Source of the DNA: Cloeon dipterum
Taxonomy: Eukaryota > Arthropoda > Insecta > Ephemeroptera > Baetidae
Reading direction: 5' to 3'
DNA: 64,000 nucleotides
NCBI RefSeq assembly: GCF_949628265.1
Contig: NC_088787.1
Span: 34,646,844-34,710,843, forward strand
Translations under genes and position numbers: made by a program
Part shown: piece after piece, positions 38,183 through 63,690 of the stretch
Layout: each line of letters begins with the position of its first letter
Position numbering within the stretch: position 1 is the first letter of the stretch
Notes under the pieces: model-generated
The model's database searches: none
Seen by the model: the letters and a program-made list of their open reading frames with translations, nothing else
What the model was told of the DNA's origin: nothing

Positions 38183-38497
38183 ATTGGACATGTAATACTT
38201 CTTTGTTTATTTGTGTAAATTTATATTAAATCAGATTTGTACAGTGTAAATTAATAATAAAATGACCACCTTTTTTTCAAATGCACATATGTATTTTGTT
38301 TCACTGATATCCAATAAAAAAGAGTTTCAAAGTAGCTGCTTTGGAGAATTTCTTATTCAAGTTGAAATTTGTTAAATATTTAAACTTATTTGAGAAAACA
38401 TTGTCAAAGTAATCTTCTTTTATTATGTAGGTGTTAGGAAAATAAAAAAAAATTTGTCTTCAATTTTGAAAGAAAATTTTATTGGTTGCAATACAGA
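38183..38497. terminator. Convergent 3' ends with poly(A) signals
   Basis: polB (plus) and the 259-residue gene (minus) end facing each other. AATAAA occurs at 38,256-38,261 for the plus strand, and its complement TTTATT at 38,478-38,483 for the minus strand. No gene is seen between. Confidence 0.6.
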
Positions 38498-39277: not shown

Positions 39278-39385
39278 GACTCAGACGTGACTGATAAAAT
39301 TCCTACTCTGATGCTTAATTTATACCATGGAGTCCTCCATGAAAAGAGTGGGGGCAAGTTAAAAGAGTGAGGAACATTTTTAAAT

Positions 39386-40307: not shown

Positions 40308-40329
40308 TAAATATTAAATCAACGATCGT

Positions 40330-41628: not shown

Positions 41629-41640
41629 CTTTGCTATATT

Positions 41641-42102: not shown

Positions 42103-42105
42103 TGT

Positions 42106-42906: not shown

Positions 42907-44004
42907 GCTGCTTTCAGGTCTGTAGCTCTAACCCAAGAATTAAATTTCGCAGGATAACCTTTCCACTTGACAAGCAGCTTCTTACTGCGACCAATCCCCT
43001 TGCTTTCAAGTATTTGTTCAATCTTGAACTCTGTACTAGCATCAATTTTAACTCTTTGTAATTCGTTCGCGTAAAATACTCCTGTGATTTTTTTCTCCAA
43101 GAGAATCTTCCAATTCGTAGACTTGTGGATTTCTTTTTATAATTTTCCTGACAATAAAATATTCGGTGGTCCAGTTTGACATGTATCCTTTTGAAAACTG
43201 CTTCTTCGAACTTACTATCTTAACACAGTCTCCAATTTTGAAAATTGGCTTTCTTCTGTCAGTTATGATCAGTTTTTCATATCTTCCTTTTCCTGAATAA
43301 AGATAGTCCCACACTTCTTTTGAATTCAAGGTGGTCACTTCATTTGGTGCTTTACCTATTGAAGAATGTTTCGAATTATTGTAGCTGTCGACAATACTCT
43401 GGATAATATCAACATATCTTTTTTTCCCAAAGTGTGTAAAATATCTATAAAGTTTATTCTTTAATGTTCTGATAAATCTTTCCACAACTGCGCATTTCGT
43501 TTCTTCGTTATCCGTAGTGATTTGGTGAATGTGGTTCTTATCTAAAACATCTTTTACGTGTTTGTTTAAAAATTCAAGACCTCTGTCGTGCCTGCATTTA
43601 AGCGGTATTCCTAAAGTTTTGAATGAATGCTCTAGAGCTACTGCCACTGTGGGACCGCGTTTATCTTTTATCGGCTCAACAAAAGCTCTTTTGGAAAAAA
43701 CGTCAATTACCACCAGGAGATATCTATTATTATCGTTATCCGACGCGATATTTTGAAACTCTGCTAAATCACATTCAAACTGATAGTATAATGTCGGAAC
43801 ATAATATCTATTCCTTTTAAATTTTCTAATTACGGGTTTGTGTAAAGTATAAACATCAACTCCCTCAACCCACTTTTTAACAGTTTTGTATGGTACACCA
43901 GAGTAGACAGAGAGTTTTTTAATGCTACTAAATCCAGCCGGACTCTTCACATCAAAGTAAATTTTGCTTAGCTTTTCGGAAGTTGCTTCTCGTACGGTGC
44001 CCAT
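42903..44004 (-). pseudogene. Polinton integrase (DDE core plus chromodomain) with a one-base frameshift
   Basis: The 5' frame (44,004-43,048) has an N-terminal helix-turn-helix-like part and the rve core with Asp in QFECDLAEF, Asp in CRHDRGLEF and Glu in AVVERFIRTL. The 3' frame (to 42,903) encodes a chromodomain, YxIEQIL-type start and KKLLVKWKGYP core, as usual for Polinton integrases. The two frames meet at a run of seven A (about 43,095-43,101): one A too many puts the upstream frame out of phase. This may be decay, an assembly error, or (less likely) programmed shifting. The gene's start overlaps the neighbouring 235-residue frame by 37 bp. Function: insertion of the element. Confidence 0.9.
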
Positions 44005-44675
44005 CTTGTTTCAATTCTCTTTTCAGCAATTTTGTTACCTTTTGGTGTGGCAGCCTGTGGCAAACTGGTCCGTTTTGAAAGATTAGTTGTCTTTATAGCA
44101 TTTTTGCAATCTGTGTTATCAACATAACTCACAGGAATTCTAATATCTTTTAGAAGATTGACAAAAACAAGCCATCCCTTAGGAGGGGCCTCGAGCTTAC
44201 TATTTGTTAAAGTGTGACTGATAAGCTCAACTATATTTCCCACTTTACCACCGTCGATTTTGGCTGCTCCCAAATCACTCCACTTGATTCGTGCATATTT
44301 TGAAAGCAGCTGATAAATTCTCTCTGCTTTTTTTCTTTTTGCTACGGCTGTTATTCCTCCGAGAAGAGAATTCATTTTTGATATTTCCTTGCTCTCTGAA
44401 TTTTGTTCATCTTCGTCTTCAGAAATATCATCATGCGGCAATGAAACTGTGAAATCTCTTTTAGTTCTTTCCTTCAACGACATAAATCTCTGCAAGATTT
44501 GTTCATATTTGAACCATTTATCTATATCGTTTAAGGATTTGTCGTTCAAAATCTTTTTAATTTCATTATCCATAAGGTTATAGTCTCCTGCTGGAGCTGG
44601 AGCTTTAGGAATTTCAGAGTAATTGATGTTATGGTTCTCGTATGGAACCAAAATCATCTTCTTAGCATGCATCAT
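43968..44675 (-). CDS. Polinton conserved protein, 235 residues, unknown function
   Basis: Intact frame. It begins MMHAKKMILVPYE, an opening seen in other Polinton proteins, followed by a helical part, an acidic patch (DDISEDEDEQ near residue 85), and a basic C-terminus. ILVPYE and the central LSKYARIKWSDLG segment look conserved. Overlaps the integrase start by 37 bp and the next gene's stop by 4 bp, so it is part of the same tight block. Likely a virion or assembly protein by position; no enzyme motif seen. Confidence 0.78.
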   Translation of the reverse strand: MMHAKKMILVPYENHNINYSEIPKAPAPAGDYNLMDNEIKKILNDKSLNDIDKWFKYEQILQRFMSLKERTKRDFTVSLPHDDISEDEDEQNSESKEISKMNSLLGGITAVAKRKKAERIYQLLSKYARIKWSDLGAAKIDGGKVGNIVELISHTLTNSKLEAPPKGWLVFVNLLKDIRIPVSYVDNTDCKNAIKTTNLSKRTSLPQAATPKGNKIAEKRIETRWAPYEKQLPKS

Positions 44676-45001
44676 TGTAAAAGCTGAGTTAGAACGGTGG
44701 ATATTACGGGTATCAACAGTGGCAATAAAAATCCACCAGCCTGTTTTATGATTTTGTTTCTCTTTTTCTTAAACGACACTTTCTTGTTAGCTAAATATCT
44801 GACAACCTTTTTGTGCGGAGCTAGTTTCTTGAACTGACGCTCTGTGAGGCTTACGTTGTTATTTAAGGTATTTATAGCACACTCACAAATGCATTTAATT
44901 ACCTCATCGTCTGCGCTTTTTAATATTTCACATCTCCTCGATGGTCTGCTGCGGGCAATTTTCCGTAAAATTCCCGCGTGATGTTTTAGTCTCTCAACCA
45001 T
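44672..45001 (-). CDS. Polinton small conserved protein, 109 residues
   Basis: Basic N-terminus, then ICECAINTLNNNVSLT, a Lys-rich middle, and a hydrophobic end, GGFLLPLLIPVISTVLTQLL. This order (CECA motif, basic middle, GGFL hydrophobic tail) is common in Polinton small proteins of unknown role. A membrane or capsid-interior function is suggested by composition only. Lies 37 bp downstream of the ATPase gene. Confidence 0.8.
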   Translation of the reverse strand: MVERLKHHAGILRKIARSRPSRRCEILKSADDEVIKCICECAINTLNNNVSLTERQFKKLAPHKKVVRYLANKKVSFKKKRNKIIKQAGGFLLPLLIPVISTVLTQLLQ

Positions 45002-45038
45002 GGCTGATAATGGTTAGATTTATAATTTGTTGTTCTTT

Positions 45039-45731
45039 TTATAGTCGTTTATTTTTCGGAACGTAACAAATGGTTTGCTCGTTTGGGAATATTCGTGTTC
45101 TGATGCGATACGAGTCTTCGCAGCCTTGTGAAAAATCAAACACAATGTAACCATGAGGTGTAGATGTAGCATCGCGATAAGCTTCGATGATATAATTCGA
45201 ATTTAGAGGTTCGACCTGCCGTGCTAGATGTGCTATCTGTCCTCGATCGCGAGGATTGTTAAAAACTACCATGTATTGAGAGTTGAGAGAGACGTCACGC
45301 GAGCCTTTTCCTTGATGAAAAACATTTTGTATCAGATTAAAAACTGATAAGGATCTATGGTGACTCCCTTTACTAAATATTTCCAATGTTTCTTTTTCGT
45401 ATTTGCCCATTAGATCATCCAATATAACCAACTTTGGACCCGAATCTACATCCGATATTTCATCAATCCTCGGAACACCCTCAAAAAAACGTATCGGAAC
45501 TTTGGTTATTCGTTGGAGTTCGGTGTGCATTTTTTGCGATATTCCATGACACCAAACAATTTCGACAATTGGTGTGTCTATCATCGATTCGATGTAACTA
45601 ATGAATTTCGTCACGAAAAATGATTTTCCACATGATGTAGGACCTGACACCGTACAGGTGAAAGGATGCATCCAGGGCAAAGTCATGATTGAAACTACAG
45701 CTTTTTTTATTTTAAGAGAGTATTTATTCAT
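45039..45731 (-). CDS. Polinton FtsK/HerA-like DNA-packaging ATPase
   Basis: 230 residues, usual length. Walker A is SGPTSCGKS (about residues 29-37); Walker B is KLVILDDLMG (about 100); the downstream QNVFHQG and NPRDRGQ segments match the sensor region of this family. Expected role: pumping the element's DNA into capsids. Start chosen at the first ATG; 14 bp separate it from the gene upstream. No lesion visible. Confidence 0.93.
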   Translation of the reverse strand: MNKYSLKIKKAVVSIMTLPWMHPFTCTVSGPTSCGKSFFVTKFISYIESMIDTPIVEIVWCHGISQKMHTELQRITKVPIRFFEGVPRIDEISDVDSGPKLVILDDLMGKYEKETLEIFSKGSHHRSLSVFNLIQNVFHQGKGSRDVSLNSQYMVVFNNPRDRGQIAHLARQVEPLNSNYIIEAYRDATSTPHGYIVFDFSQGCEDSYRIRTRIFPNEQTICYVPKNKRL

Positions 45732-45745
45732 TGCACAAAGAACAT

Positions 45746-46869
45746 CTAAAAAAGAGTCTGGTTGTCGTTCGTCACATTTCTCTGAATGTATTCACACACT
45801 CTAATGGGTGGTGGGAGATTTACCGAGGTTGCATCGAAGAATAAGCCCTCGCCAACAAGTTCATACTCAATGTTTTCGGCAATGCGGTCAGAAACAGCAG
45901 CGATATTTTTGTACAGAACTTCGTGACCGTAATGACGACTTCTAGAGGCATTTCTCTTAATGACGCGCTTCAATTCCCTTTTAATGATTACTTCAGACGT
46001 CAAGTGACAATTGCAGGCAGGCGTGCGGTGGGTTTTACGGCGACAGTAACGACACCGCTTTACCCTGCGCATGGTTGAAGCAACAACGTCGCGAATTACC
46101 CCATTGTATGCGTTTTCCATTGACTGGAACCAATCGTCGATCTGAGGGATCGTGTCGTTTGCAATGTTGCGAACAGCTAGAAATTGAGTGTTTGAAAGCA
46201 CAACTCGATAAGGCCGTTTCACATGTGTATTATTATAGTCATCATCATCATCAGGTAATTCGTACTCAGTCAGAGTGAACCAGAGATTTCCATAATCATC
46301 ATCGTTCACTTTCAAGTTAACGCCGCCGCTCGTGAATGATTTGCCAGCAACAAATCGGTTTGTATTGACTTCAAAGAATGAGTTTTTTAGGTTTGTGCTC
46401 ACGTCTGAGAACGAGACAAGACGTTCGTGACATTTGATGAAGAAATGCGACATCACGTATCCATTGCTGGCTACATTGTGTACAAGCCCACAACTAACAT
46501 TTGATGAAATCTCGTATGTGACATGGCTAACAGGGAAATAATTTTTCCTCCTTTCAATGTTCAGACGATCGTACACTTTGCTGACAGGACACCGATCGGA
46601 CGCTTTGTTGAAGAACAACTCGTAGGCTTCGGCTAGATTGCGCGTTAGTTTTCTTGGTTTTTCTCGGCCGCGCCAAATCTTCTCAAAGCCATCACCGAAT
46701 TTGAAGATGCACTTGGTATGAAGGGTATCAAGAACGTCGGCATCGGCGTCAAACACAATCTTAACCTGAAAAATAAAATAAGCAATAATATTAGTTCCAG
46801 TCTGCAATTTATCACATGTTTGATATATATATGGTGTATACACTGTACCTCGTCTGCATCGAGTGCCAT
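45746..46869 (-). CDS. Polinton cargo protein with a CxxC/CxC zinc-like motif, unknown function
   Basis: Two exons: 46849-46869 (MALDADE) and 46765-45746, joined across an 83-nt GT-AG intron, giving about 346 residues. The last base triplet of exon 1 and first of exon 2 are in phase. The middle is mixed alpha/beta by appearance with an acidic run (LPDDDDDYNN). Near residue 250-275 a basic zinc-like motif, RCRYCRRKTHRTPACNCH, could bind metal and nucleic acid. I do not recognise the family. It is transcribed divergently from the BIR gene, with 182 bp between start codons, so the two may be co-regulated. Confidence 0.75.
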
Positions 46870-47051
46870 CTTTTAGCGTTGGGTGCTCAGGGTAGTGTTC
46901 CACGGTATACTACAAATTTCTACGACGATGCTCCTACTTTTATTAACCCCCCACTCCATTTACCCCACCACTCCATTTACCCCACCACTCCATTTACCCC
47001 CACCAATTTTGAGTCAGTCAACCTTTTTCCATTTCAGCGTTAGTATCGAAA
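46870..47051. promoter_or_regulatory. Bidirectional promoter region with 18-bp tandem repeats
   Basis: Lies between the start codons of two divergent genes. Three copies of CCACTCCATTTACCCCAC-type units occupy about 46,948-47,002. No clear TATA box for the plus-strand gene was seen. The repeat could be a regulatory or simple-sequence expansion. Confidence 0.5.
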
Positions 47052-48089
47052 ATGACGCCGTCCTATGTAGAGTCCTCTGCGCTCATGCGTTTCCTTCATT
47101 TCGAAATTCCCTTCGTTAACAAGTACAGGCAGTTTGCCAAGCAATTTGCTCTCTCAGGCTTTCTTGCCACTGATGAAGATCACGTTCATTGTGTTTTTAA
47201 CAGTGATCATTCTTTCAAGTTAGATGATTGCGAGAAAATTTTGACTGACCATGAGTCGTGCGCTGAAGAGAATAATTCAAACATTGATGATTTTCCTCTA
47301 GAGGGCGACCTTTCATTTTATTTTGAGACAGATCGCACTTTCTCTTTTCTTCATTGCCAATTACCTGCTTCCCTCATTGATGCCTTACCTACTGCTAGAA
47401 GCTTGTCTGAACGTGGATTATATTTTTCACACACAGATAAATCTATCATGTGTCAGTTTTGCGATTTAAAAACTAAAACTTGGCGCAAAGGTGAATCGGG
47501 TACGATTGCTCATTTTCGATACAGCTCGTACAAGTGTCCGCTTGGAGACATACCATGCGGAAATATAGCGCTTGATGTAGAAATACGACCACGAAGATAT
47601 GGCTTAGTCCTCTCCGAAAAGAATGATAAAGGTAACAAAAAAAAATCTTGCTAGTGATTCGTTAATTTATTTCTCTTCTTAATTTCAGATCGCTTTCGAG
47701 GCATCCCACTTAACTTGGACATGTCAGCATACATCGATAGACTCGCTACTTTTGAAACTCATTCAAAACAGCACTCATACCATGTTGATATTGCGAGAGC
47801 CGGTTTCTTCAAGCATCCTGTGTTCGGCGATTTAACTTGTTTCCACTGCGGCGGAATTTTGAGGAATTTGTCGAGCAAAGATGACCCATGGCTTGAGCAC
47901 GCTAAATGGTTCTCGCACTGCTTCCACGTTCAAGACGAGCGAGGCGTAAATTACATCAGAAAAGCTATTAAGCTGAGACTTGGATTTAGACGTGAATTCA
48001 ACGAAATTGTTTGTGTCAAAAACCAATACAACAATGCCACTATTTCTCTGCCAGATACAGTTTGTAGCGTTGTAAGACTCTCAACTTAA
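47052..48089 (+). CDS. Polinton-carried IAP-like protein with three BIR domains, no RING
   Basis: Exons 47052-47631 and 47689-48089 (GT-AG intron, phase 1), 326 residues. BIR3 (about residues 215-280) has the full zinc signature: C-x2-C (CFHC), 16 residues, His, 6 residues, Cys, plus a RLATF start and DDPWLEH core. BIR2 (about 115-175) also fits C-x2-C-x16-H-x7-C (CQFC ... HFRYSSYKC). BIR1 (about 8-70) keeps the fold pattern but has only one of the first cysteine pair, so it is degenerate. There is no RING or CARD. BIR proteins of cells and insect viruses block caspases or act in cell division; an anti-death role here is inferred from family and context. It is the last gene before the right TIR, a typical place for cargo. 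Confidence 0.88.
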
Positions 48090-49995: not shown

Positions 49996-52900
49996 TCAAT
50001 GCAGAGATTCACACACGATGTTTGAAATGAGCTGAACAGCCTGCATTTTGTAAGGTGGGGAAAAGCTGAGTGCGATTGCGTAGTTGGTTTCGAGTGTATC
50101 ATTGGACAAAAGGTCCTCGGCCCAAGTAAAATTGAATTCAGCCTCCGAATAGCACCACGCGGGCCGGTCCAGCTTGCCGAGGCGCGAGGCAGCCACGCCG
50201 AACAGAGTACCAGACGCGTATTGAAATGCTAAAATGCGTTTGTGAGATTGGAAATAGCTAAAATTATATTGAAATCTCACTCAGATTACTCTGGACCATG
50301 CAGTCGTACTTTTCCTTGGTGTCGATTGTCGCCAGTCGCATGCCATGGCTGCAGCAATATTCTAAATTTGATGCTAAGGTTCTCTGAAATTTTAAAAGTC
50401 TTCCATTATGTAGAGAAATAATATATTATTTTCTGAATAATTCATTAAAATTTCTTACAAACCATCTGTGGCGAAGTTTCTGAGCACACCAATCGATTCT
50501 TGAGGGTCGAATTAGGTAAAGTGGTTATTTTTTCCGACCAAAAAGTGCAGCGCGACGTGCGAAATTTTTTTCCCGCCAGATCTATATGAACGTATTTGCG
50601 AGAGAAATGCGCATGCGTAAGAGCTGGCTGGATCTGTCAAAGAATTAATTCGTACAGGTGGTCTCTCTGCAAGTGCTCAAACCAGCTCTCACGCATGCGC
50701 ATCTCACATATATATTTTTGGCGGGAAAATAGTCTGCACTTTTTGGTCGGAAAAAATATCTACTTTACCTAATTCGACCCTAAAGGATGAGTTAGTTAGT
50801 TGGTGAGCTCAGAATCTTCGTCAAAGACGGTCTTTAAACCTTTAAAGCTCTAAAAAGATTGCACATACCGGTGAGGTTCCGAGTATCAAAAATTTCTTAT
50901 TGCATGCACGCTGAAGAAACAATTTCAATCCAGGCCCTAGGGCGCGAAATGGAACTAGAAATAATAACAAAAAAATAGTGTTTAATCAAATCCAAGATAT
51001 CAGCACAAACCCGGGGAATCTGCAATTGATTTTGGCTCAGCCTGTAATGAACAAGTTGCACTATTATATTAAGTGTAAATATTTAATTTGGTTACATACT
51101 CTAGCGTAGCAATTGTATTCCGGACGAATGCCCTTCACAGGAGGAAGTATGATTGGCGACTCCTGAGATAAAATACACTTTGAATATTTCGGTTGGAGCC
51201 AAGTGAAAATCTAAATACCGTCAGAGGTAATTCCATCACGTCTAAGAAATCCCCGAATAATTTCGGTGAATTTTCCTGGCCGCAACTAAGTAGACTGCTG
51301 CATTTATCGCACGGATCCATTCCCTCTTTTTGAGCCAATTAAAAAAAAGAAACGTATAAAATTAGAAATTATTACTTGCTGCATTGGTGCAGTAGTCCAA
51401 AGTTGAGGACATATCCAGCATTTTCTTTGTGTCATCGTTAGATATAGCGTGGAAAGAAGCAAATACTCTGTCTCCTTCTAGGTTTCCATCAACAAACTAT
51501 AGAGAAATAATAGCTTTCAGATCTTTGACTATTTTTTAAACGATGCACAAACCAATCCAGTCGCCTCGCCATAACATTTTAGGAAACATTTCTGCCTCAA
51601 TTCAGTCGGCGTTGAGTTAAAACAGTGCTTTACTTCACCTGAAATTAATTGTTACAGGGGAATAAAAGAAAATGTCATTTCGTATTTTTCCAGGACTTGA
51701 AATTAAATATTAAGCTTGAAACTAAAATAAAGGAAAAGGTGATTAAAGAATTTAACTAAGGAAATTTATAAGTCTAATTAATAACAATTTCGTATCAAAT
51801 AAACAAATAAATAATGCTCTAAAGCAGTGAGATCCAAATTTATTCTTATAGAAATTCCCGATATCGGAATAAAAACACGGTCCAGAGTCCTTTTAACAAT
51901 TTTTTGGCCCCTGCTTGAACATTATTAATGGTTTGGGGCAGTTTTCCAGTAGTAAAATTAAAAAAAAACCGCGGTTGATTTTTAAAAAAAAATATTCAAC
52001 GCGGAGAAATAAATTATCTCACTCTCCGTCATATTAAACTCAGCAGCGCACTCCGTCTCGACCGTCCCCGCGTACGATGTAGTTTGAGCTCTCCCCTGTT
52101 TAATAAAATATTTGGATTTTACCTGCATGCCAAACTTAAATACAATACCTCGCACACGTATCTCATTTTTGAAGTACAAATTTCGTCAAACAAACGCCCG
52201 TCTGTAGACACGGCCAGACAAGACCCATTCGCGGATGAAAGATCGGGTTGTCCCTTTGCCCACCTTGCATTTTCGCGTAGGAGTCTGTTGGACGAGCAGA
52301 AGCCAAAGTTATATCTGCAACCTTGGTCGGTCGCGGAGGTCCAGAAATTTTCCCCTCTTATGCTTGCGTCTGCGGTTAAAAAAATTCATTTTAATTATTT
52401 ACAAAAAATTAATCGTAGTAAAAGGTTGAACTGTTGAAAGCGCCGACCAAAACCGAGTACATGAAATTCTGGTGCAAACTGAGCAGCTTCAAACCCACGT
52501 CGCAACACGCGGCAAAAGAATCTGCGAACTATATAATTATTTGTGTTGTCATAAACTCATGTTTTTTTCTTGTTTCTCAGCACAAACAGTTCGAGAATCG
52601 TTTGGGTGGCTGATCAAAAGCACTCGAGAATCGTTTTTAATCAAAATTCCATGTCGCGTTGGATCTATGGTGGATTCATTAAATATAATGGCGTTGGCAA
52701 AAGATTTGGAATTTACCAATTAAATAATTTGTGGCTTTATCTGCCAGTATTTGAAATAAATTAGCCTGTAACTATATATTAGACAGCTATGTTTAATCTA
52801 ATCCTTGATTTTTAAACCTTCTTTTTGCACGAGTTTGGGCATCTCGGAGAGGAACAGGTTCTTGGAATAATTGGTCCCTGTATTTTAAAATTATGTTATA

Positions 52901-55900
52901 TTAATAAATAACCGTTTTTGATGAATTTTCTGAGCACACCAATCGATTCCTCAGGGCTGAATTAGATAAAGTGGATATTTTTTCCGACCAAAAAGCCGAG
53001 CGGGACGTGCGAACTTTTTTCCCGCCAAAACAATATGAATGTATTTGCGAAGAACTGCGCATGCGCGAGAGCTGGTTTGAGCACTTTCAAAGATCCCGCC
53101 TTTACGAACGACGTCTTTGTTAGATCCAGCCAGCTCTGACGCATGCGCACTTCTCACATTCAAATTGTTTTGGCGGGAAAAAGGCTAGCACGTCGCGCTG
53201 GACTTTTTGGACGGAAAAAATATCCACTTTACCTAATTCGACCCTCAAGAATCGTTTGCTGTGCTCAGAAAGTTCGTCAAAGACGGTCTATTACTCCCGC
53301 GATTAATTTTGCAACTTCCTACCTGACATGAAAGCACGCTAAGTACCGCACAGTTCTTGTCTAGAAGTTGCACGGCTTTATTTGCCTTGGACATTTCCAT
53401 TCGAACGCAGTTTTCAAACGCATTTTTCGCGTAGTTCGGCTCATTTGGCGCCCAGTTGGTAGTGATGTTGCTTCCGCTGCTGCACCAGAAGTAACTTGAA
53501 TTAGCCTCTTGCGTCCTCCTTAATCCAAACGTCCAGTAAAATCTGCTTATTCTGCTCTTGTAGTCTGATAAAAAAATTTAAATTAATTTTATGGAGTTTA
53601 ATATGTGTTTGTGCTGCGGACAATCATCATCAATCAAAGAATTGAGGCATTTAACGTCTGTTGCTAGCTCCAAACCAATAGGCTTCATTCCAAGTTTGCA
53701 ACATCTCTCCATATTTTGCTCCCAGGTAACCTTGAAGATTTATTTATTTTAATTTATTAGGGTTTTTAATTGATGTTTTTACGAAGCTCCTTCCGAAAAG
53801 GTACAACTTTCCGCACATTTCCACCCAAAATCCATGTGATGATAAATCTAATTAGGAATGCGTTAAAGTAATGAAAACCGGATTTTTTTAGAGAGTATGC
53901 TTATTGATTCCTGAAGGTCGAATTAATATAGGTTTCACTGCCAAATCAGTGGAAACGTAAAATCCGTTACATTTTCGGTCTGAACTTCTCTATATAAGTC
54001 GGACCTTTCAGAGAGATGGGTTCTTTTGCTTGGCTCGCAGTCAGATCGAGACAGCAGCGCCACATCGACAGCAAATACAATTAGGCGACATGCTGTGGCG
54101 CTGCCGTCTCGATCTGCCTGTGAGCCAATATTGAGGTAATTTCAGACCAAACTCCGCTAAAGTATTGCTAAGTTTTCGTTACATTTCTGCCGATTGAATT
54201 GTCTAACCTAATTCGACCCACATGAAAGTTTAAGGTAAAATTAAATTACAACCTTTGATGGTCCCATCAATATTAAATAAGGACATCTAGAATATTTCCT
54301 TTGTCTAATTAGTTTTTTTGCTAAAATAATTCTCATACATCTTTATTGCATGTTGAATCGCATGAAGGAAGAACCTGAAGGGGAAATTGACAGAGATTTG
54401 AAAGAAATTTGGAGGCACAGATACAGATTTTACCTTTGGGGCTTGAGTGGTTGTTGTTGGTGGTTTGGTGCCTGCCGCTTTCCAAGGGGAAAAATATTCA
54501 TCGCTTATTTTCCACTGTATGGTTGCTGCTTCTGTTGTGGACTGCAAAAAGTACAATTTGACTCGCCTTTCAGTTATCAAGTGTCTATGAAATTGAGGTT
54601 TTCATTTCTAAAGCAACATAACAGCCTATCTGACTGAGAGCAATGAAACTACAGAAGCGCCGAACGCAACATTGAACTACAAAAATTTTCAATGTCATTT
54701 GGAAACGTTACATCAAAGTGTTGAAATTTGAAAAGGAATTCAACAGATTAAAATTGTGATTACCTCTGTAACTGTTGACGGTACGCTGATTTGAGTCTTT
54801 ATGGTGCTGCTGTTTTCTTCAGCCTGTTGTTCAAAAAGAAAAATTAATTGTCATTTTATATGAGAGTTATTTTATATAGGTCATCAAATGTGGGCAGCTG
54901 GCTGCTAGTAAAAGGAAGTGACGATGATTACGTATATGCCCTGCATCCGTTTGGAGTTATGATGGGCTAGCTGTGTCTGCTGCTAACCAAACAAATTGGG
55001 AGGCATATAAAATTTACCATTGGGGCATTAGTGGTTGTTGGTGGTGGTTTGGTGCCTGTCTCATTCCAAGGGGGAAAATATTCACTTATTTTCCATTGTA
55101 TGGTTGATGAATCTGTTGACGGCTGGGTTTCAACAACACTTCTTGAGATTGTACTGGATGGAGTAGTTATTTCACTGCTGGTTTGAGTCTTTATGGTGGT
55201 GCTGCTGCTTTCTTCAGCCTAAATTTTGTTCGAAAAGAAAATTTAATATCATTTTAGATGAGAGATATTTGATATAGGGCATGAAACAGCGCTCGGTGTG
55301 GGCAGCTGGCTGCTGATAAAAGGAAATGACGATGATGATGACGTATATTCCCTGCATCCGTTTGGAGTGATGATGGGCTACCAACAGGTTTCTGCTGCTA
55401 GCCAAAGAAATTGGGAGGTACGGAATTTACCATTGGGGCATTAGTGGTTGTTGTAGGTGGTTTGTCTCTCCAAGAGGAAAAATATTCAGTTGTTTTCAAT
55501 TTTATGGTTGCTGCTTCTGTTGACGGCAGGCGGGTTTCAACAACACTTCTTGAGATTGTACTCGATGGAGTAGTTGATCCACTGATTAGAGTCTTAATCG
55601 TTCTGCTGCTTTCTTCAGCCTGCGTTTCGAAAAGAAAATTTTAGATGAAAGTTATATAATAATAGAGGGCTTCAAACAGCGTTCGATGTATGCAGCTGGC
55701 TGCTGATAAAAGGAAGTGACGGTGTAGGCCTTGCATCCGTTTGGAGTGGTGATGATGGGCTAGCAACAGAATTTTGCTGGGCGAAAGAGAAATTCAACAG
55801 CTGAATATATCTCTGTTGAATAACGTAATACCACCAAGGGAGCACTGGTTTCGTCTTGAGAACTGATAAAATCTCTTAGCTCGGTTGTTATTTCTGATAA

Positions 55901-56422
55901 AATCATTGATTCAGTAATGTCTTCTGATGTTAAATCCACAGAGGTTTTCTGGAATTTTCTTCAGTTGATAGTTAAATGTTAAAATTTAACCCAGTAAACT
56001 TGCTTTGGGGGCACCGTTGGAAGTTGATGAAGTTGAACGGACAACTTTCCTTTTCTGTGCCTAATTTTAAAAATTCTCAACCTTAAAAGATGCTGAAAAT
56101 CTTACAAATGTGCTGTGGGTTTGCACAGTCCTTCTCGCAAAGGACAAGTTTGATCTCGGATTTGTACATGAATTCTTCCCGCAGCACTTGATTATATAGC
56201 TCTTTCTCCTATGCGCTTTAGGATGTTTTCGATTTACTGAAAATTATTTTTCTGAATACACGAATCGGGCTGAATGACTTGCATACCTCTGCGTCTTTTG
56301 GCACTTTCAATAGAAATCTAGAATCACAATAAATTATTTAGATTAAGGAATTTATTTTAAAATATTACCACCAAAACGACAAGCACCACTAGAAATATTG
56401 CAAATATTTTTCCTCCGACCAT
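49996..56422 (-). CDS. LEC1: secreted multidomain C-type lectin with an OBP-like domain
   Basis: Signal exon 56422-56369 (MVGGKIFAIFLVVLVVLV). An exon near 56,100-56,220 carries a basic CCGKNSCTNPRSN motif. 54,300-56,050 holds Thr/Pro-rich mucin-like exons. CTLD1 (about 53,300-53,860): MCGKLYLFGRSF, CCKLGMKPIGL, WCSSGSN, NWAPNEPNY, FENC; EPN is the mannose-type motif. A GPIIPRTCSSP exon follows. CTLD2 (about 52,150-52,700): ACCDVGLKLLSL, FWTSATDQGC, WAKGQPDL (QPD, galactose-type), MRYVCEV. OBP-like domain (about 51,222-52,094). CTLD3 (about 49,996-50,960): CCSHGMRLATIDT, YDCM, RLGKLDRPAWCYS. Extracellular. Sugar recognition is inferred; the calcium WND site is degenerate in CTLD1. Introns carry three short MITEs. 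Exon borders in the Thr/Pro part are uncertain. Confidence 0.82.
50461..50842. mobile_element. MITE (GGTCGAATTAGGTAAAG family), copy 1, in a LEC1 intron
   Basis: The arms are inverted complements: AGGGTCGAATTAGGTAAAGT near 50,506 and its complement near 50,765, with outer CTGAGC-containing arms, and an inner pair around GCGCATGCG. About 380 bp, no frame. Outer ends ACC(A/G)TCT are matched on both sides; the target duplication is not clear. Confidence 0.75.
51222..52094 (-). other. Odorant-binding-protein-like domain of LEC1
   Basis: Four exons give the insect OBP spacing: C1-x25-C2-x3-C3-x42-C4-x9-C5-x8-C6, within the classical ranges (C2-x3-C3 and C5-x8-C6 are invariant in the family). Key pieces: ECAAEFNMT, KCFLKCYGEATGL, LDYCTNAA, DPCDKCSSLLSC. 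One additional cysteine (HCF) precedes C2, and C5+3 is also Cys. OBPs bind small hydrophobic ligands; ligand here is unknown. Confidence 0.85.
52909..53290. mobile_element. MITE (GGTCGAATTAGGTAAAG family), copy 2, in a LEC1 intron
   Basis: Closely related to copy 1, with the same arm order: outer TTTCTGAGCACACCAATCGA, then the GAATTAG-ATAAAGTGGATAT arm, CCGACCAAAAAG, and an inner inverted GCGCATGCG part. About 380 bp. Open frames on both strands in it mirror each other and are not genes. Confidence 0.75.
53892..54235. mobile_element. Related MITE, copy 3, in a LEC1 intron
   Basis: Shares the AGGTCGAATTA terminal arm and its complement TAATTCGACC (near 54,212), but has a different centre, with a TCGAGACAGCAGCGCCACA arm near 54,045 and its complement near 54,100. 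About 340 bp; no frame. Confidence 0.6.
54930..55790 (-). repeat. Tandemly duplicated intron/Thr-Pro exon units in LEC1
   Basis: At least two full units of about 410 bp and a partial third share GCAGCTGGCTGCTGATAAAA (near 54,895, 55,300 and 55,690), TTTACCATTGGGGCATTAGT (55,012 and 55,426), and TTTCAACAACACTTCTTGAG (55,128 and 55,541). They expand the mucin-like linker. Frames inside differ by small indels, so not every unit need be used. Confidence 0.75.
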
Positions 56423-57197
56423 AATGATTGCGAATGCTTTACTGAAATGAGAGAGTGAATTGATTGATGGATGATTCATCTGCGCAACTCGTGGAACTGT
56501 TGCGTTTGAAATGATTTTATCGCAATATTCTGATTGCGCGATACATATACGTTTCCAATGGATTTTTCATAGAATTTGAAATTGTATGAATCGCATTCAT
56601 TTCAAATGACCAACACTGAGGTTTTCTGGACCCTGCTTGATAAGTTTTGTTGATGTAACTAATGAATTTCAGCATATTCTCTAGTTAGATTAAAGATTAA
56701 TCAGATCTGCTTTGCACGATATACAAATTAGAGACTGTATAAAATTTTTTGGGCATTCCACGCTCGCCGTTTTATATTTATCGTGCTAAATATTTTCCAC
56801 AATATTTTAGGTATTCCATGAACTTCGTTTATACGCAGGCATTTCAATTTCGGGTGAAACACGGGACAGCGACTAAAATTCAATCTTTATCAAGTTCAGA
56901 AAGTTGAATACCAACCCAAAATTCAAAACACGACAGATGTTGTACAATTTTTTGTGTGTGCTTGTGTGCTTTTTTTCCTTTTGGTCCTGATTGGGGATGA
57001 ACGTATTTTTTATTGGGATTTAAACATTCCTGTTCTGCGTCTAAAAATAGTAGCAAGGGAATTATGAAATTTCGGAATCAATATACGTAAAAAAACAAGT
57101 TTTATTTCAACCTCCAAACATTATTTTGCAACAATACCGTAAAAAAGTTATTAATCAATAGCAACAGCAATATTTCTCCGTACGTTTTATTTATTAA
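56423..57197. other. Intergenic DNA between LEC2 and LEC1
   Basis: AT-rich, 775 bp. It must hold the LEC1 promoter and the LEC2 3' end. No clear TATA box or repeat was seen; nothing else recognised. Confidence 0.4.
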
Positions 57198-60100
57198 TTA
57201 ATCAATTGGTTCGCAAATTACACTTTTAGTAGTTTCCACTGCTTGCATAGTGTACGGGGGAGTAAAACTCAATGCAATCGCGTAGTTGGTTTCCAAGGTG
57301 TCAGTCGACAACTTGTCCACCTCGACGGTAAGATTGAATTCAGCTTCTGAGAAGCACCATGCGGGCCGGTCCAGTTTTCCCAATCGCGTGGCTGCCACGG
57401 CAAACATCGTTCCAGCGCCAAAGGAGCCAGCTGAAAATAGAATTCAATTATCAACAAATCAAAATGGGTATTAAATATCACTTATGTTTTTCTGGACCAT
57501 GCAGTCGTACTCTGCTTGTGTGTCAATTGTGACTAGCCGCATACCAAAGTTACAGCAATATTCCAGATTTGAAACAAACGATCGCTGGAATTAGTGGGAG
57601 GAATCAGAAAATCTGCAATCACAGAACTAATGACATACCGATTCGTTCGATTGATATATGTAATATTTTCTATTGCACGCCTCTGACAGTTTAAATTTCT
57701 GTCCACCGACATTCATGGTCAAATTAACTTGAAACACAATTCGATAATTTCAACAAATCGTGAATTGATATATTTATCATACCATTTAAGACCGTCAATC
57801 TAAGTATTAGTTCTGCCTGCAATGAAAGGTTTTTCAAATTTGGTAAAAAGAAACAATTTCAAAGTATCGCTGACCATGCCAACGCACTCGAATTCCGGAC
57901 AAACGCCTTTCGTCAATGGAGACAAAATGAGCGGAGATTCCTTAAAATATTAAAATTAATAAAAATGGTAATAAATTGTTGCTTTCATACTGTTATTGAT
58001 AGCTCCATTAAATTTGCGAATCCGTCAAATAATAAGCTAGGCGAATTTTCTTGAGCGCAACTGAGAAGACTGCTGCTCTTGTCACAAGGATCCATTCCCT
58101 CTTAAATATGTACATGTTTGAAAACTGTTCCATTTTTAAATTATAGAATAATTATATTACTTGCTGCATTGCTGCAGTAGTCCATTGATGCAGACATGTC
58201 CAACAGCTGGATATCATTCTGAGTCAATCTTTGGAAAGCAGAAAATATCGTGTCTTCTGCCAAGTTTCCATTTTCAAACTAGAGAAAATACAAAACTCGA
58301 TATAAATTTTTAAACTATATAAAATCATAAATTATACCAATCCAATCTCTTCGCCGTAGCATTTTATGAAACATTTTTCCCTCAAGTTGGACGGAGTCGA
58401 GTTTAAAAGCAAACTTGCTTCAACTAGAGAGAAATTCGGATTTGATAATATTTTATTAATAATTGCAAGCACCACCCACTCGCAGTCAATCCGTATTCCT
58501 TCGCGCATTCACTTTCAACGGACTTGAAAAACGAGACTGTCGGAGTTCTTCCCTATTTTTAAATTTGCTTAATTCAAACTCCTGGTGAAAAGGGACAAGA
58601 GAAACCTCGCAAACGTATCTCATCCCAGTGCTGCACCTTTGGATGTGCAAAAGCCCTTCAGGGGACACCGCCAAGCAAGTTCCGTCCACGTTTGTCAGGT
58701 TGAGCTGTCTTGGTGCCCACCTGACCAAAAATTGAGAAAAAAAAATTAAAAATCAGATATAAAAACCTGGCATTATCGCGGAGCAGTTTGTTGGTCGAGC
58801 AGAAACCAAAGTTGTTTTTGCAACCTTGGTCGGTGGCAGATGTCCAGAATTGTCCAACAGAAATACTTGCGTCTGACCAAAATTTTATTTTATTTAAAAA
58901 AAAATCGATCATCTCATTTTGTCAAACTTTTAAAGGCGCTGATCAGAATTGAGTACATAGTGTCCTGGTGCAAACTGAGCAGTTTCAATCCCACATCGCA
59001 ACACGCAGCCAACGATTCTGTAAACTATATTTTCTCTAGATTATTAATATACAAGACGTTTCAACTCAATTTGCGACCTACAGTTCTTAAATCGGTTGAA
59101 TGACTGATCATGAATACGCGTGAATCGTTTTTGATCCAAATTCCATGCTTGTCCGCGTCTTAAAAATAAAACAAAATCGAACCTTTTGTAAAGAAAAGAT
59201 GATATATTGTCATTTACCAATCAAGTATCTGGTTGTATTGTCTGCCAGTATTTTAAATAAATCATCCTGTAGCCAAACTCAAAATTAAGGGACATTTTTT
59301 AATGAGGTCTTTTTCGATCAAACCTTCTTTTTGCAAGGAATAGCTGGGCAGCCAGGAGAGCTACAAGTTTGTGGAATAATCGGTCCCTGCGAAATGATTT
59401 GTAATTCAATAGAATGTAATAATTAGTAATTAATTGATAACCTGGCATGAAAATACGCTTAGTACGCCGCAGTTTGCGTCAGAAAGTCTCACGGCTTTCA
59501 GTGTTGGAGCCATTTCCAGCCGAATACAGTTTTCTGAGGCGTTTTTTCTGTAATTTGGCTCTCCCGCTGCCCAATTTCCGGTTATATTTCTTCCGCTACT
59601 GCACCAGAAATAGAAGGATTGAGCGTCTTGTGTACTCCTCAAACCAGACGTCCAGTAAAATCTGCTCATCTTTTTCTTGTAGGCTTTCAAAACGTTGCTT
59701 TTTTATTGTTTTTCACAAGTTTTTAAACTCTTACAATTATTATTAATCAAAGAATTGAGACATTCAACGTCGGTTGCGAGCTCCAAATCAATTGGCTTCA
59801 TTCCGAGTTTGCAGCATCTCTCCACATTTTGCTCCCAGTTTACCTTTATGATGGTTTCATTCTTTCACTATTTTTAAAATTATAAAAAAACTAACATAAC
59901 TTCTGCCAAAAACGAACAGCTTTCCACACATTTCCACCCAAAAACCGTAAGACGACAATTCTAAAAATTGGATTTTATTATTTATCATGACGAGATGGAA
60001 CGTTTTTCTTACCTTTAATTGACCCATCCAGGTTAAACAAGGTGGTCTATAATTTTTTTGTTCTAGTAGTTAAAAAAATTGAGTTAATCTGTTACGTCTT

Positions 60101-61526
60101 TGTTGCACGATGAGACACATGTAGGTAAAGGTAAAACCTTGTGTTACGGTGTTAAAATATTTAAATGAAGAAAATTTTAGAGCAGGAAGAAAATCTTATT
60201 ATACCATTGGGGCTTTGGTTGTTGAAGGTGGAGGTTTGGTGCCGGCCGCTTTCCAAGGAGAAAACGTTTTACTCACAGTTGTCCATAGTACCGTTGCTGC
60301 TTCTGTCGTTGTCTATGGAACAATTGCGATAGTTTTTATTGATTTTAAGTTTTTCTAGTAATTCTAAGTTGGAAAGGGAATCATTATAGAATGAAAGTCA
60401 TAAGATAACTACAGTTGAAGTGCTGGTCGTGACAGTAGTAGTGAAGGTGGTAGTAGAATTGGGTCGGGTAGTGGTGGTTTCAGTTTGCCGTGCTATTGTC
60501 GTCATTGTTTCACTTGTTCGTCTAGCCTGTGTGGGAAAAGTAAATAAGTAATGAAATCATTCTATAAATAATTTCAAATGATTTCTTCTGATTATAATAA
60601 AAAGTAAATTAAAATCCAGTTTGAAACCTCCATTGTTGTAGTCTGAGCAGTACTGATTGGGGTTGTTGACTGACTCATCGTTTCAACAATTATTGGAGTT
60701 GTCGACGTTCCATTTAATCCTTCTACCGGGACCTGGAACATTTGCGCAATAATTTCGAACATACAGCGCTGAATTTTGGAGCTACAAACAGTGTCGTTTG
60801 TTGTGGGAATCATGGAAAATGTTGTTGCAATCGCCGTATCCGTTTGGAAAGAGAAAGCAGACGTAGCAACAGATTTATCCTAAATAACGAATGAAACGAA
60901 AAATTCTTCATTTTGTTTGAAATTTTTGAAATCACTGATTGAGATGCTTCATAGTTAGTTGTTTCCAATTCTATCGCAGTGTGTCCAGACTTTGTAGACT
61001 CAGTGATGAAGTTTGATGGTGACTCCTTAGAAATGGTCTTTAAATCTCGATACAATTAATTTTATTGATAAATTTTAAAATAATTATACCTCAGTTATGA
61101 TGTTTTTCGGAGTGGGAGATGGCTTTGTCGTGGAGAAAGACTTACTCGTCTTTCATTAAATAATTATTTAATTTTGTCTTGATTAGGAAACTAAAACTTA
61201 CTCTCACGGAGGTGGTATTTGCAGTCCTTATTCTTGCAAGGGACAAGTTCGATTTCGGATTAGTGCAAGAATCTTTGCCACAGCATTTTATAATGTAGTT
61301 GTGTCTCCTGTTTTTGCTGCGTTCTCTGCGTTGCTCTTTGAGTTTCAATTATTTAGTTTTATTTGCTAAAAATTTGAATCCGTTATTTACTTCTATTCAA
61401 TTTGATGCCTTCAACGCATAGCTGAAAATAAAGATAAAAATGTAATATTATTTATCATAATTCAGTGTAAATTACCACCATGAACAGGAGAAACAGAACT
61501 ATCGCGGCTTTACTCCCAAAAATCAT
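57198..61526 (-). CDS. LEC2: secreted multidomain C-type lectin with an OBP-like domain
   Basis: Same plan as LEC1. Signal exon from 61,526 (MIFGSKAAIVLFLLFMV). An exon near 61,200-61,347 has CCGKDSCTNPKSNLS. Thr-rich exons lie near 60,180-61,060 (for example TPIIVETMSQSTTPI). CTLD1 (about 59,430-59,960): FWVEMCGKLFVFG, WCSSGRN, NWAAGEPNY (EPN), SENC. A GPIIPQTCSSPGCPAIP exon near 59,330-59,392. CTLD2 (about 58,590-59,170): ACCDVGLKLLSL, FWTSATDQGC; here the sugar motif is WAPRQLNL, so QPD is lost. OBP-like domain about 57,994-58,560. CTLD3: CCNFGMRLVTIDT, YDCM, RLGKLDRPAWCFS. Complete within the window; no frame lesion found in the exons I checked. Confidence 0.83.
57994..58560 (-). other. 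Odorant-binding-protein-like domain of LEC2
   Basis: Cysteine spacing C-x26-C-x3-C-x41-C-x9-C-x8-C, matching the insect OBP signature. Pieces: ECAKEYGLTAS, KCFIKCYGEEIGL, MDYCSNAA, DPCDKSSSLLSC. The extra cysteine seen after C5 in LEC1 and LEC3 is Ser here, so it is not part of the conserved six. Confidence 0.85.
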
Positions 61527-61789
61527 GACTGCCTCTGTTTTCGTGCTTCCAACAGCGACAACAACTGCTATACCATCCACAGTAGAGGAACCATAACTTC
61601 CTGCCAAAATTGTGACGTTGGTCCCATTCAGCGTGACGCAGTGGAAAATTTTTATCATGACCAAAATTCCTGTCCTAGAAATTTCACATACTCGAGTTTG
61701 GGCATACTCATTAATCGAGAATTGAGGTTAATTTTATATTCCGGTGCTCAGGAAGAATTTATCTGCATAGCAATTGAAAAAATATCGCG

Positions 61790-62095
61790 ATGCGCTAGTT
61801 GGGTACGCCCTTAGTGTTCGAAGCCGCCAACAGATGGCTCCACCGTAGACTTTCTTAAAATTTAATTTTAAGGCACTTTCCGCTACGATTTCAGACTCAA
61901 TCCTCTGCTGCTGTGCATTCTTCACTTAATAAGCTTTCTTTTGACGTGCTGAAAACCAAAATCGGTTCAGACAATCGTGAAAAACTGTGTTTTGTAACTT
62001 AAAATTATTTTTATAGCATACGGTGGCGCCATTTGTTGGCGGCTTCGAACACTAACAATAAGGGCTTCCTCAACTGCTGTATTGGGACTTTTTCA
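61790..62095. mobile_element. Short inverted-repeat element between LEC3 and LEC2
   Basis: TTAGTGTTCGAAGCCGCCAA (near 61,811) and its complement (near 62,037) form arms of about 50 bp that continue imperfectly outward. About 300 bp, AT-rich centre, no frame. Typical of a MITE; the target duplication is not resolved. Confidence 0.65.
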
Positions 62096-62175
62096 TTAAT
62101 TTTTAAAATTGTTTATTCATAATTAAAATGCAATTCGTTGTCACACATCATTGATTTTCTTTATTGTTATGATTT

Positions 62176-63690
62176 TTATATTAAAGATTCACACACCCCG
62201 TTAGTCACGGACTGCACTGCTTGCATGCGGTAAGGCGGGTCGAAACTAAAAGCAATCGCGTAGTTGCTTTCCAGGGTGTCATTCGACACTTTGTTCTGTG
62301 CGAGCGTGAAATCGAATTCGGCATCCGAGTAGCACCACGAGGGCCGATCCAGCTTGCCGAGGCGCGATGCAGCCACTGCGAACATTTTTCCAGTGCCCAA
62401 CAAGGAAGCTACAAAATAAAATAAGTCAGGATGATTGAAACAGATTAAAAAAAAAAATCTAACCGATTCCACTCTTGATCATGCAGTCGTATTTTTCCTT
62501 GGTGTCAATCGTGGCCAGTCGCATACCGTAGCCGCAACAATATTTCAAATTGAAATTCATAGATAGCTATTTAAAGGAAATAATTTAGTGATTCTTTCGG
62601 CAAAAAATATATACCTGTGAAGGTGTTGTATAAACAAAAAAATTGCGGTTGCACGCATGCGTCATTTGGCCTTTATATAAAGCAGTGAAGTTATGGATAC
62701 TGAAATCTATAGTAAAAATGGTGTAAATTATTGTGTTTGAAATTATTCGTATCAGAATCACTCGTCATGGTCGCTATCATAGTTTTTAATTCAGCCTGCA
62801 CAAATATTTGTGATGCTTTTTTACAATTAATTTATTTAATTTCAAAAAACCTTCTCAATGCATTCAAAATCAGGACAAACGCCTTTCTCAGGTGGAAGAA
62901 TGAGTGGCGTCTCCTGCATTAAGAATTATTCGAAATAGAAAAGTTACAAAATTAAACGAACTGTTATGGCTAATTCCATCGATTCCACAAATCCACTAAA
63001 AGAATCAGGGGAATTTTCCTGGCCACAAGCAAGAAGGCTGCTACATTTATCGCAAGGATCCATTCCCTCTTCAATTTTATTAGAGTTTATTAGCCAACGG
63101 TTTTTTATTTAAACCTTACTGGCTGCATTGGTGCAAAAGTCCATTGTGGATGCCATGTCAATTAATTTATCAGAGTCGTCCGACGATATTCTTTGAAATG
63201 AGGCGAATATTTTGTCTTCTGCCAGATTTCCATCGATAAACTAATTTTGTAGCTTTTTAAAATAATTATTTTTTTTAAATTTGATTGGAATAACCAATCC
63301 AGTTCCCTCGCCGTAGCATTTTAAAAAGCATTTCTCATTTAAATCGTTCGGCGTGGAGTTAAAAACGGTCTTTACTTGATCTGGAATTTATTAAAAACCA
63401 AAAATTAAAAAACCAAACATAACTTTTTAAACGCACTTCCTGTTAAATTATATTCCTTTGCGCATTCTCTTTCAACGGCATCCAATAATGAGCTAGTTTT
63501 TGCTCTCCCCTAATTAACACAAAATTTATAACTAATATTCAGTAAAGAAAATTCCAACGCACCTCGCAAGCATATCGCATTTTCGTGTTGCAATCTTCAT
63601 CGTACAAAAGTCCCTCTGAAGACACGACTAAACATGTTCCGTTTATTAATATCAGATCCGGCTGGCCTTTTGCCCATCTAAAAGAATTTT
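62176..63690 (-). CDS. LEC3: C-type lectin with an OBP-like domain (5' part beyond right edge)
   Basis: Third paralogue; only the C-terminal half is in the window. The CTLD2 end is at about 63,555-63,690 (WAKGQPDL, a QPD motif, then MRYACEV). OBP-like domain about 62,963-63,512. CTLD3 about 62,176-62,890: THACNRNFFVY, CCGYGMRLATIDT, YDCM, RLGKLDRPSWCYS, ending NGVCESLI. Very similar to LEC1 over this part, and all splice signals I checked are intact. Signal peptide, Thr-rich linker and CTLD1 should lie beyond 64,000 if it follows its neighbours. Confidence 0.83.
62963..63512 (-). other. Odorant-binding-protein-like domain of LEC3
   Basis: Spacing C-x25-C-x3-C-x42-C-x9-C-x8-C. Pieces: ECAKEYNLTG, KCFLKCYGEGTGL, MDFCTNAA, DPCDKCSSLLAC. 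Intron positions match LEC1 and LEC2, so the fusion predates their duplication. Confidence 0.85.

What the first reader, a model, noticed from the sequence alone, without database searches (positions are those of the whole stretch)
49996..63690. C-type lectins with an embedded odorant-binding-protein domain, in three tandem paralogues
Each gene encodes, between CTLD2 and CTLD3, a stretch with the exact six-cysteine insect OBP signature (C2-x3-C3, C5-x8-C6, other spacings in range). The same intron positions occur in all three copies, so this is a fixed architecture and not an annotation join. A secreted protein that couples sugar-binding domains to a hydrophobic-ligand carrier fold is unusual; I know of no standard family with this order. 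It suggests a receptor-like or scavenging protein for glycolipids, pheromone glycoconjugates or microbial surfaces.
Basis: partly seen in the sequence, partly recalled or inferred. Interest (0 to 1): 0.87.

Follow-up and report, generated by a model that had tools for sequence, protein, structure and literature searches.

The report
Lectin proteins carrying odorant-binding domains
A mayfly genome holds a large family of secreted lectin-type proteins with an insect odorant-binding domain built into them, which suggests that many of this species' unusually numerous 'odorant-binding protein' genes are really parts of larger fused proteins.

Summary
Observation confirmed and enlarged. The window is from the mayfly Cloeon dipterum. 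Tandem minus-strand genes encode: signal peptide, CCGxxSC motif, Ser/Thr-rich stalk, CTLD1, CTLD2, OBP, CTLD3. There are five tandem copies, not three; one is cut by the window's right edge. The OBP segment passes Pfam PBP_GOBP (35-47 bits, cut-off 22), has the six-cysteine signature and is under purifying selection. Database gene models in Cloeon and in Neocloeon triangulifer join the same domains.

The larger result is genome-wide. Of 172 loci matching OBP last-exon queries, 165 (at least 163 distinct) have a CTLD exon just upstream on the same strand; the other 7 could not be examined. The published record repertoire of 191 OBP genes in this species (PMC7250882; 'lectin' absent from its main text) is therefore probably mostly these chimeras. 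Shared introns and correlated CTLD/OBP divergence point to one fusion followed by radiation. One OBP exon that looks stand-alone was also seen.

Function is inferred: a secreted carrier whose lectin domains hold an OBP pocket at a glycan surface, perhaps on gills. No transcript reads were seen, and no structure could be predicted.

The parts
49996..56422 (-). Copy C: whole gene, 26 modelled exons, 887 aa (LOC135936209 = P0003 covers all but the N-terminal part)
   Evidence: Exon model; RefSeq model
56106..56422 (-). Copy C: signal-peptide exons (56422-56369, 56317-56287) and CCGxxSC exon (56236-56106)
   Evidence: N-terminal hydropathy peak and motif; signal peptide judged by eye
54339..55619 (-). 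Copy C: Ser/Thr-rich stalk exons and linker; the list of stalk exons may be incomplete
53323..54286 (-). Copy C: CTLD1 (4 exons)
   Evidence: profile comparison
52149..52765 (-). Copy C: CTLD2 (4 exons; second/third exon junction 52588/52528)
51219..52095 (-). Copy C: OBP module, exons 52095-52023, 51638-51553, 51496-51376, 51325-51219
   Evidence: PBP_GOBP 35.3 bits; exons
49996..51041 (-). Copy C: CTLD3 (4 exons); preceded by linker exon 51162-51100
57198..61526 (-). Copy B: whole gene, 26 modelled exons, 866 aa
59442..60046 (-). Copy B: CTLD1 (4 exons)
   Evidence: no Pfam match; profile comparison of the family
58606..59266 (-). Copy B: CTLD2 (5 exons)
   Evidence: Lectin_C 21.4 bits, just below cut-off
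57991..58552 (-). Copy B: OBP module, exons 58552-58480, 58423-58338, 58278-58161, 58100-57991
   Evidence: PBP_GOBP 46.7 bits; exons
57198..57816 (-). Copy B: CTLD3 (4 exons)
   Evidence: no Pfam match; profile comparison of the family
62176..63677 (-). Copy A, the part inside the window: last CTLD2 exon 63677-63563, OBP, linker 62913-62851, CTLD3; the gene starts at 66728 outside the window
62962..63509 (-). Copy A: OBP module, exons 63509-63437, 63380-63295, 63240-63120, 63068-62962
   Evidence: PBP_GOBP 44.6 bits; exons
62176..62795 (-). Copy A: CTLD3 (4 exons)

Best explanation
SHOWN: the genes encode proteins with an N-terminal hydrophobic signal-like peptide, a Ser/Thr-rich stalk and an OBP module between CTLD2 and CTLD3. 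The OBP module is bounded by phase-0 introns and has been inherited together with the neighbouring CTLD2 through a large radiation in C. dipterum; the architecture is also present in Neocloeon. INFERRED: a single exon-shuffling insertion of an OBP in an ancestor of these baetid mayflies, then tandem and dispersed duplication. INFERRED: the protein works as a glycan-tethered carrier of hydrophobic ligands. The CTLDs hold the molecule at a glycan-rich surface (mucus, cuticle, biofilm) and the OBP pocket binds small hydrophobic molecules there. The likely site is the chemosensory surfaces of the aquatic nymph, where the literature places many OBP transcripts of this species (head and gills).
For: Architecture and splice phases in five tandem copies. 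OBP by Pfam and by solved structures. Six-cysteine signature in 65 of 65 modelled or database segments, which overlap each other. CTLD exon upstream of the OBP last exon at 165 of 172 loci, 7 unexamined; chance expectation by local shifts 3.4 of 171, at most 9. Shared OBP introns in 42 and 44 of 44 models. CTLD2 and OBP distances correlate, r 0.885, 59 genes, 0 of 5000 permutations. OBP dN/dS 0.11-0.20 in the 7 of 10 tandem pairs with finite dS. At least one EPN/QPD/QPN-type motif in CTLD1 or CTLD2 of 11 of 12 proteins. PMC7250882 (abstract and passages): 82 of 167 OBP genes expressed in gills, 25 gill-specific.
Against: No transcript read, structure, ligand or glycan was tested. A literal WND motif was found in none of 12 proteins and a WND-like one in 7 of 12; P0012 has neither motif, so sugar binding may be lost in some. 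CTLD3 keeps no recognisable sugar motif in the window copies and evolves faster. That the published gill-expressed OBPs are these genes is not shown: the supplements could not be read.
Confidence: 0.5

Rival explanations
1. Immune recognition: the proteins are secreted pattern-recognition molecules. The CTLDs bind microbial surface sugars and the OBP module binds fatty-acid or lipid parts of microbial envelopes; the large, diverse gene family reflects contact with microbes rather than odour detection.
For: Multi-CTLD secreted proteins are common immune lectins in insects (recalled). Large arrays and the fast CTLD3 in younger copies (dN/dS 0.64-0.96 in 6 pairs) fit diversifying contact.
Against: The literature reports OBP-family expression in HRP-positive, probably neural, gill cells (PMC7250882, passages), if those are the same genes. 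The OBP segment itself is conserved rather than fast.
Confidence: 0.25
2. Structural or adhesive mucin: the OBP module is a mere disulphide-braced spacer without ligand, and the protein is a component of mucus, cuticle or egg coat.
For: Ser/Thr-rich stalk (S+T 0.22-0.38 in 10 proteins); degenerate WND motifs; extra cysteines in the OBP of A, C, D and E.
Against: The OBP keeps PBP_GOBP scores above cut-off even in three divergent subfamilies (28.5-45.3 bits) and low dN/dS, more than a spacer needs.
Confidence: 0.17
3. Two neighbouring genes, a lectin and an OBP, wrongly joined.
For: No transcript reads were inspected; database models are automatic predictions. One stand-alone-looking OBP exon exists at C3:3625495.
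Against: The last CTLD2 exon ends in a splice donor, not a stop; the first OBP exon has no start codon or signal peptide and is in phase. The same arrangement recurs at more than 160 loci. Joined models exist in two sets of Cloeon records and in Neocloeon, where 6 of 10 are named isoform X2.
Confidence: 0.03

Closest known systems
Classical insect odorant-binding proteins (Pfam PF01395 PBP_GOBP)
   Same: HMM score above the curated cut-off, six cysteines with C2-x3-C3 and C5-x8-C6; solved-structure matches named OBP or PBP (9 of 11, 21 of 24; the rest bear only Anopheles gene numbers)
   Different: Here one module of a 650-890 aa protein with three CTLDs and a stalk, instead of a small single-domain protein; a seventh cysteine in A, C, D, E and an eighth in C
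Multi-domain secreted insect C-type lectins such as immulectins (recalled)
   Same: Secreted, tandem CTLDs, EPN/QPD-type motifs
   Different: Those carry no OBP (recalled); here CTLD1 and CTLD3 are too divergent for Pfam in the window copies and WND is not kept
D7 salivary proteins and two-domain or dimer OBPs of flies and mosquitoes (recalled)
   Same: Precedent for OBP-fold modules in larger secreted proteins
   Different: Those join OBP-like domains to each other, not to lectin domains

Membership tests
Insect OBP (PF01395) | PBP_GOBP profile above the curated cut-off | tested here: met
   Copies A-E 35.3-46.7 bits against 22; 15 of 15 database proteins scanned
Insect OBP (PF01395) | Six conserved cysteines in OBP spacing | tested here: met
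   65 of 65 overlapping segments
Insect OBP (PF01395) | Six-helix fold with hydrophobic cavity | not tested
Insect OBP (PF01395) | Small, single-domain soluble protein of about 120-170 aa | tested here: not met
   OBP is one module of a 740-887 aa protein in the complete models of B, C, D; so it is an OBP domain, not a classical OBP
Insect OBP (PF01395) | Binds small hydrophobic ligands | not testable with these tools
   Needs a binding assay
C-type lectin domain (PF00059) | Lectin_C profile above the curated cut-off | tested here: inconclusive
   CTLD2 met in C and E, below in B and D; CTLD1 and CTLD3 of B no match; profile comparison links all three CTLDs
C-type lectin domain (PF00059) | Calcium-dependent sugar motif: EPN or QPD together with WND | tested here: inconclusive
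   EPN/QPD-type motif in CTLD1 or CTLD2 of 11 of 12 proteins, WND-like in 7 of 12, literal WND in none
C-type lectin domain (PF00059) | Binds glycans | not testable with these tools
   Needs a glycan array

The most novel reading that the evidence does not exclude
The largest OBP repertoire reported up to 2020 for an insect, that of C. dipterum, is for the most part not an expansion of ordinary odorant-binding proteins but a radiation, in baetid mayflies, of well over 150 stalked lectin-OBP-lectin chimeras. They would form a separate class of chemical-capture protein for aquatic surfaces, in which lectin domains pin a hydrophobic-ligand pocket to glycans, and the OBPs seen in the sensory gill cells would be such chimeras.
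Probability: 0.5. Interest if true: 0.88.

Novelty: new variant of a known kind. Interest (0 to 1): 0.78.

Why it matters
OBP counts are used to compare how insects smell, and the C. dipterum record was read as support for gills as chemosensory organs. If most of those genes encode lectin-OBP chimeras, the count, the family tree and the function need re-reading. A new architecture that couples glycan recognition to hydrophobic-ligand binding also makes it testable what OBPs do in water. A heptageniid mayfly was reported with only 10 OBPs, all 135-252 aa (PMC13205551, section 11), which suggests a lineage-specific invention, provided that survey would have seen chimeras.

Tried and rejected
Annotation join of neighbouring genes: rejected on splice phases, recurrence and database models. 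Chance cysteine pattern: rejected by profile scores and solved-structure matches. Pseudogene drift: not for B, C, D (open frames; dN/dS). Copy E's hand model lacks its last exon because an end anchor was not found, but the database model P0002 is complete. Copy A has a one-base shift in the first CTLD2 exon, outside the window; an alternative donor gives an open path, so its status is open.

Led nowhere: the PF01395 search of the own genome gave one match, C3:3625495, and none in the window, since exons are split. A mosquito OBP query gave nothing (uninformative). The query with the stand-alone exon found itself and two weak places at E 0.33, so stand-alone OBPs were not counted. NCBIfam gave nothing for three proteins. 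Eight paper searches (three of them with zero papers) listed no title or abstract start that tells of such a fusion; two of the listed papers were opened, in passages and sections.

Caveats on counts: one search scored 150 of 167 candidates, 150 of 155, 150 of 644, so counts are lower bounds. The queries came from the fused family, so stand-alone OBPs would be under-found. In 2 cases two OBP hits share one CTLD partner. At C3:13742279 a CTLD1-type exon and a CTLD3 exon but no CTLD2 were seen. The 12 regions were chosen because exon queries had hit there. Of the 20 models, 8 span over 5 kb and may chain neighbouring copies, and 2 hold an in-frame stop. The 65 segments overlap. 27 of 150 CTLD hits had no OBP-exon hit downstream; not followed up.
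Full report
WHERE IT IS. The window is G000:C2:34646844-34710843 of a 190.1 Mb assembly in 10 contigs. The protein search returned the window's own genes as Cloeon dipterum records: copy D = LOC135937576, copy E = LOC135936163, copy C = LOC135936209. The organism is the mayfly C. dipterum, family Baetidae; Neocloeon triangulifer is of the same family.

GENE MODELS. I read the minus strand and 30 kb to the right of the window and built exon models by hand. Five tandem copies were found: C 56422-49996, B 61526-57198, A 66728-62176, D 81770-75975, E from 88112 down to about 82380 (coordinates above 64000 continue beyond the window; E's last exon is missing from my model). All modelled introns are GT-AG except one GC-AG in D. 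Order in each: two signal-peptide exons, an exon with CCGxxSC, Ser/Thr-rich exons (my list of these may be incomplete), a Pro/Cys linker, CTLD1, linker, CTLD2, four OBP exons, linker, CTLD3. CTLD1, CTLD2 and OBP start and end at phase-0 introns and CTLD3 starts at one, as expected of modules movable by exon shuffling. The database models agree with mine except at the junction of the second and third CTLD2 exons, where theirs is better.

IS IT AN OBP. Pfam PBP_GOBP (cut-off 22 bits): copy C 35.3 and D 38.8, E 36.4, OBP segments of A 44.6 and B 46.7. Among solved structures the segment of copy E matches 11 sequences at E up to 1, best 3.8e-5: 9 are named OBP or PBP and 2 bear Anopheles gene numbers only. 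A 13-sequence family profile matches 24 at E up to 0.01, best 2.6e-9: 21 named OBP or PBP, 3 with Anopheles gene numbers only. The six cysteines fit C1-x25-C2-x3-C3-x41/42-C4-x9-C5-x8-C6; a seventh, three residues after C5, occurs in A, C, D, E but not B, an eighth only in C.

ARE THE OTHERS LECTIN DOMAINS. CTLD2 scores against Lectin_C (cut-off 22.6): C 22.7, D 16.8, E 32.1, B 21.4. CTLD1 and CTLD3 of copy B give no match; CTLD1 of the paralogue P0006 does. Profile-profile comparison gives 99.8 % for CTLD1-CTLD2, 94.9 and 95.8 % for CTLD3 against CTLD2 and CTLD1, and 0.1 and 0.3 % for OBP against CTLD2 and CTLD3 as control. An EPN/QPD-type motif is present in CTLD1 or CTLD2 of 11 of 12 proteins; a WND-like motif in 7 of 12, literal WND in none.

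RELATIVES. The first, copy D, found 6 proteins, all C. dipterum. The second, the OBP region of P0002, added Neocloeon triangulifer P0007. The third, a 12-sequence alignment, found 17 proteins at E up to 1e-5, 7 Cloeon and 10 Neocloeon, nothing else. The 15 scanned by id pass PBP_GOBP (5 of 5; 10 of 10); the other two, P0001 and P0003, are copies D and C, scanned as my translations. The search needs shared five-residue words and length limits, so absence elsewhere is weak evidence. Of the 10 Neocloeon proteins 6 are named isoform X2, which suggests transcript support (from general knowledge of such records; I saw no reads). P0008 and P0011-P0014 reach from the N-terminus to CTLD3 and carry the CCGxxSC motif and a Ser/Thr-rich stalk. 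In 10 of 10 proteins checked the motif is present. Strong hydropathy peaks are N-terminal only in 7, absent in P0011 and P0014, and copy E's truncated model has one more at 588-589.

GENOME-WIDE COUNT. Twelve further regions (20 stretches), chosen because exon queries had hit there, were read. A spliced aligner written for the purpose (it reproduces P0006 but for its first residue) gave 20 models, each covering CTLD1 at 0.94 or more, CTLD2 0.97, OBP 0.96, and CTLD3 at 0.51-1.0; 8 span over 5 kb and may chain neighbours, 2 hold one stop. Exon scans of the whole genome gave 150 OBP-last-exon hits and 150 CTLD-core hits, both at the scoring cap. Of the 150 OBP hits, 103 have a CTLD hit on the same strand 477-2563 bp upstream (median 557); 0 of 150 have one downstream within 3 kb on the same strand, and 0 of 150 on the opposite strand. 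A second OBP query (131 hits) added 21 loci, and copy B came: 172 loci. By coordinates 118 of 171 pair with a CTLD, with 116 distinct partners; random local shifts give 3.4 on average and 9 at most. With copy B the total is 165 of 172, at least 163 distinct; the remaining 7 are unknown. The loci lie on contigs C1-C5, many in arrays (23 at C4:33.58-33.84 Mb, 14 at C1:40.54-40.70 Mb).

ONE ORIGIN. In 44 modelled loci an OBP intron lies 12 residues after C2 in phase 0 in 42 of 44, and one lies 4-5 residues after C4 in phase 1 in 44 of 44. A further intron right before C2 is found in most of the other models but not in the window's subfamily. Pairwise distances of CTLD2 and OBP correlate with r 0.885 over 59 genes and 0.837 over 32 non-redundant ones; 0 of 5000 permutations reached either. 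A single fusion followed by duplication predicts this; repeated fusion does not.

SELECTION. Among the five tandem copies OBP dN/dS is 0.11-0.20 in the 7 of 10 pairs with finite dS; CTLD1 0.09-0.26, CTLD2 0.12-0.24, CTLD3 0.16-0.38 (10 pairs each). In four younger copies (6 pairs) OBP gives 0.21-0.56 and CTLD3 0.64-0.96. Synonymous sites are near saturation in the older pairs, so these values are rough.

STAND-ALONE OBP. At C3:3625495 an OBP exon has no CTLD core in the 3.2 kb held. My queries came from the fused family, so stand-alone genes were not counted, and they may be more numerous.

LITERATURE. 'Lectin' occurs 0 times in the main text. The Parafronurus youi study (PMC13205551; section 11 and passages seen) reports 10 OBPs of 135-252 aa, kept irrespective of length. 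Eight searches of the paper library listed no report of a CTLD-OBP fusion; the library lacks most subscription papers. That the 191 published genes and my 172 loci are largely the same is an inference from number, species and method; I put it at about 0.85.

MECHANISM. Shown: architecture, shared descent, constraint. Inferred: secretion (peptide judged by eye and hydropathy), glycan attachment by the CTLDs, hydrophobic-ligand binding by the OBP pocket, action at nymphal sensory or mucous surfaces (0.5). Immune recognition (0.25) and a structural role (0.17) remain open; wrongly joined neighbours 0.03. No structure could be predicted: 14 refusals because the queue was full.

VERDICT. Both domains belong to known families; their combination, its scale and what it implies for the published OBP count appear new: a new variant of a known kind, of high interest.

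Noticed in passing
window 29034-48089: ORFs that look by eye like a Polinton/Maverick or adintovirus-like element: DNA polymerase, integrase, packaging ATPase, protease and capsid-like ORFs, and BIR-like ORFs (names recalled, no search made)
   Followed up: no
window 1-17000, minus strand: Tandem trypsin-like serine protease exons (GDSGGSL motifs) in several copies (by eye)
   Followed up: no
introns at window 50830-50450 and 53300-52900; also in copies D and E: A repeated element of some 350-400 bases with similar ends sits in several introns of the lectin-OBP genes (by eye), possibly a small transposon
   Followed up: no
L002, 64681-64632 in coordinates continued from the window (copy A): The first CTLD2 exon of copy A is one base longer than in the other copies and shifts the frame; an alternative donor in the linker gives an open path
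   Followed up: partly
L001 (C3:3625495): An OBP exon that looks stand-alone, without a CTLD core in 3.2 kb
   Followed up: partly
G000 C2:8.30-8.33 Mb, C3:8.76 Mb and others: 27 of 150 CTLD-core hits have no OBP-exon hit within 3 kb downstream: lectin-only relatives, or chimeras with a diverged OBP
   Followed up: no
L018 about 6730-7955 (C3:13.742 Mb): A copy with a CTLD1-type exon, an OBP exon and a CTLD3 exon but no CTLD2 found
   Followed up: no
N-termini of copies B-E and of P0004, P0008, P0011-P0014: A conserved basic stretch followed by CCGxxSC soon after the signal peptide, in 10 of 10 proteins checked, of unknown role
   Followed up: partly
window 49996-63690, CTLD3 exons and younger paralogues at C3:2.43 and C5:25.45 Mb: CTLD3 evolves much faster than the other domains in young copies (dN/dS 0.64-0.96 in 6 pairs), possibly relaxed or diversifying
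   Followed up: no
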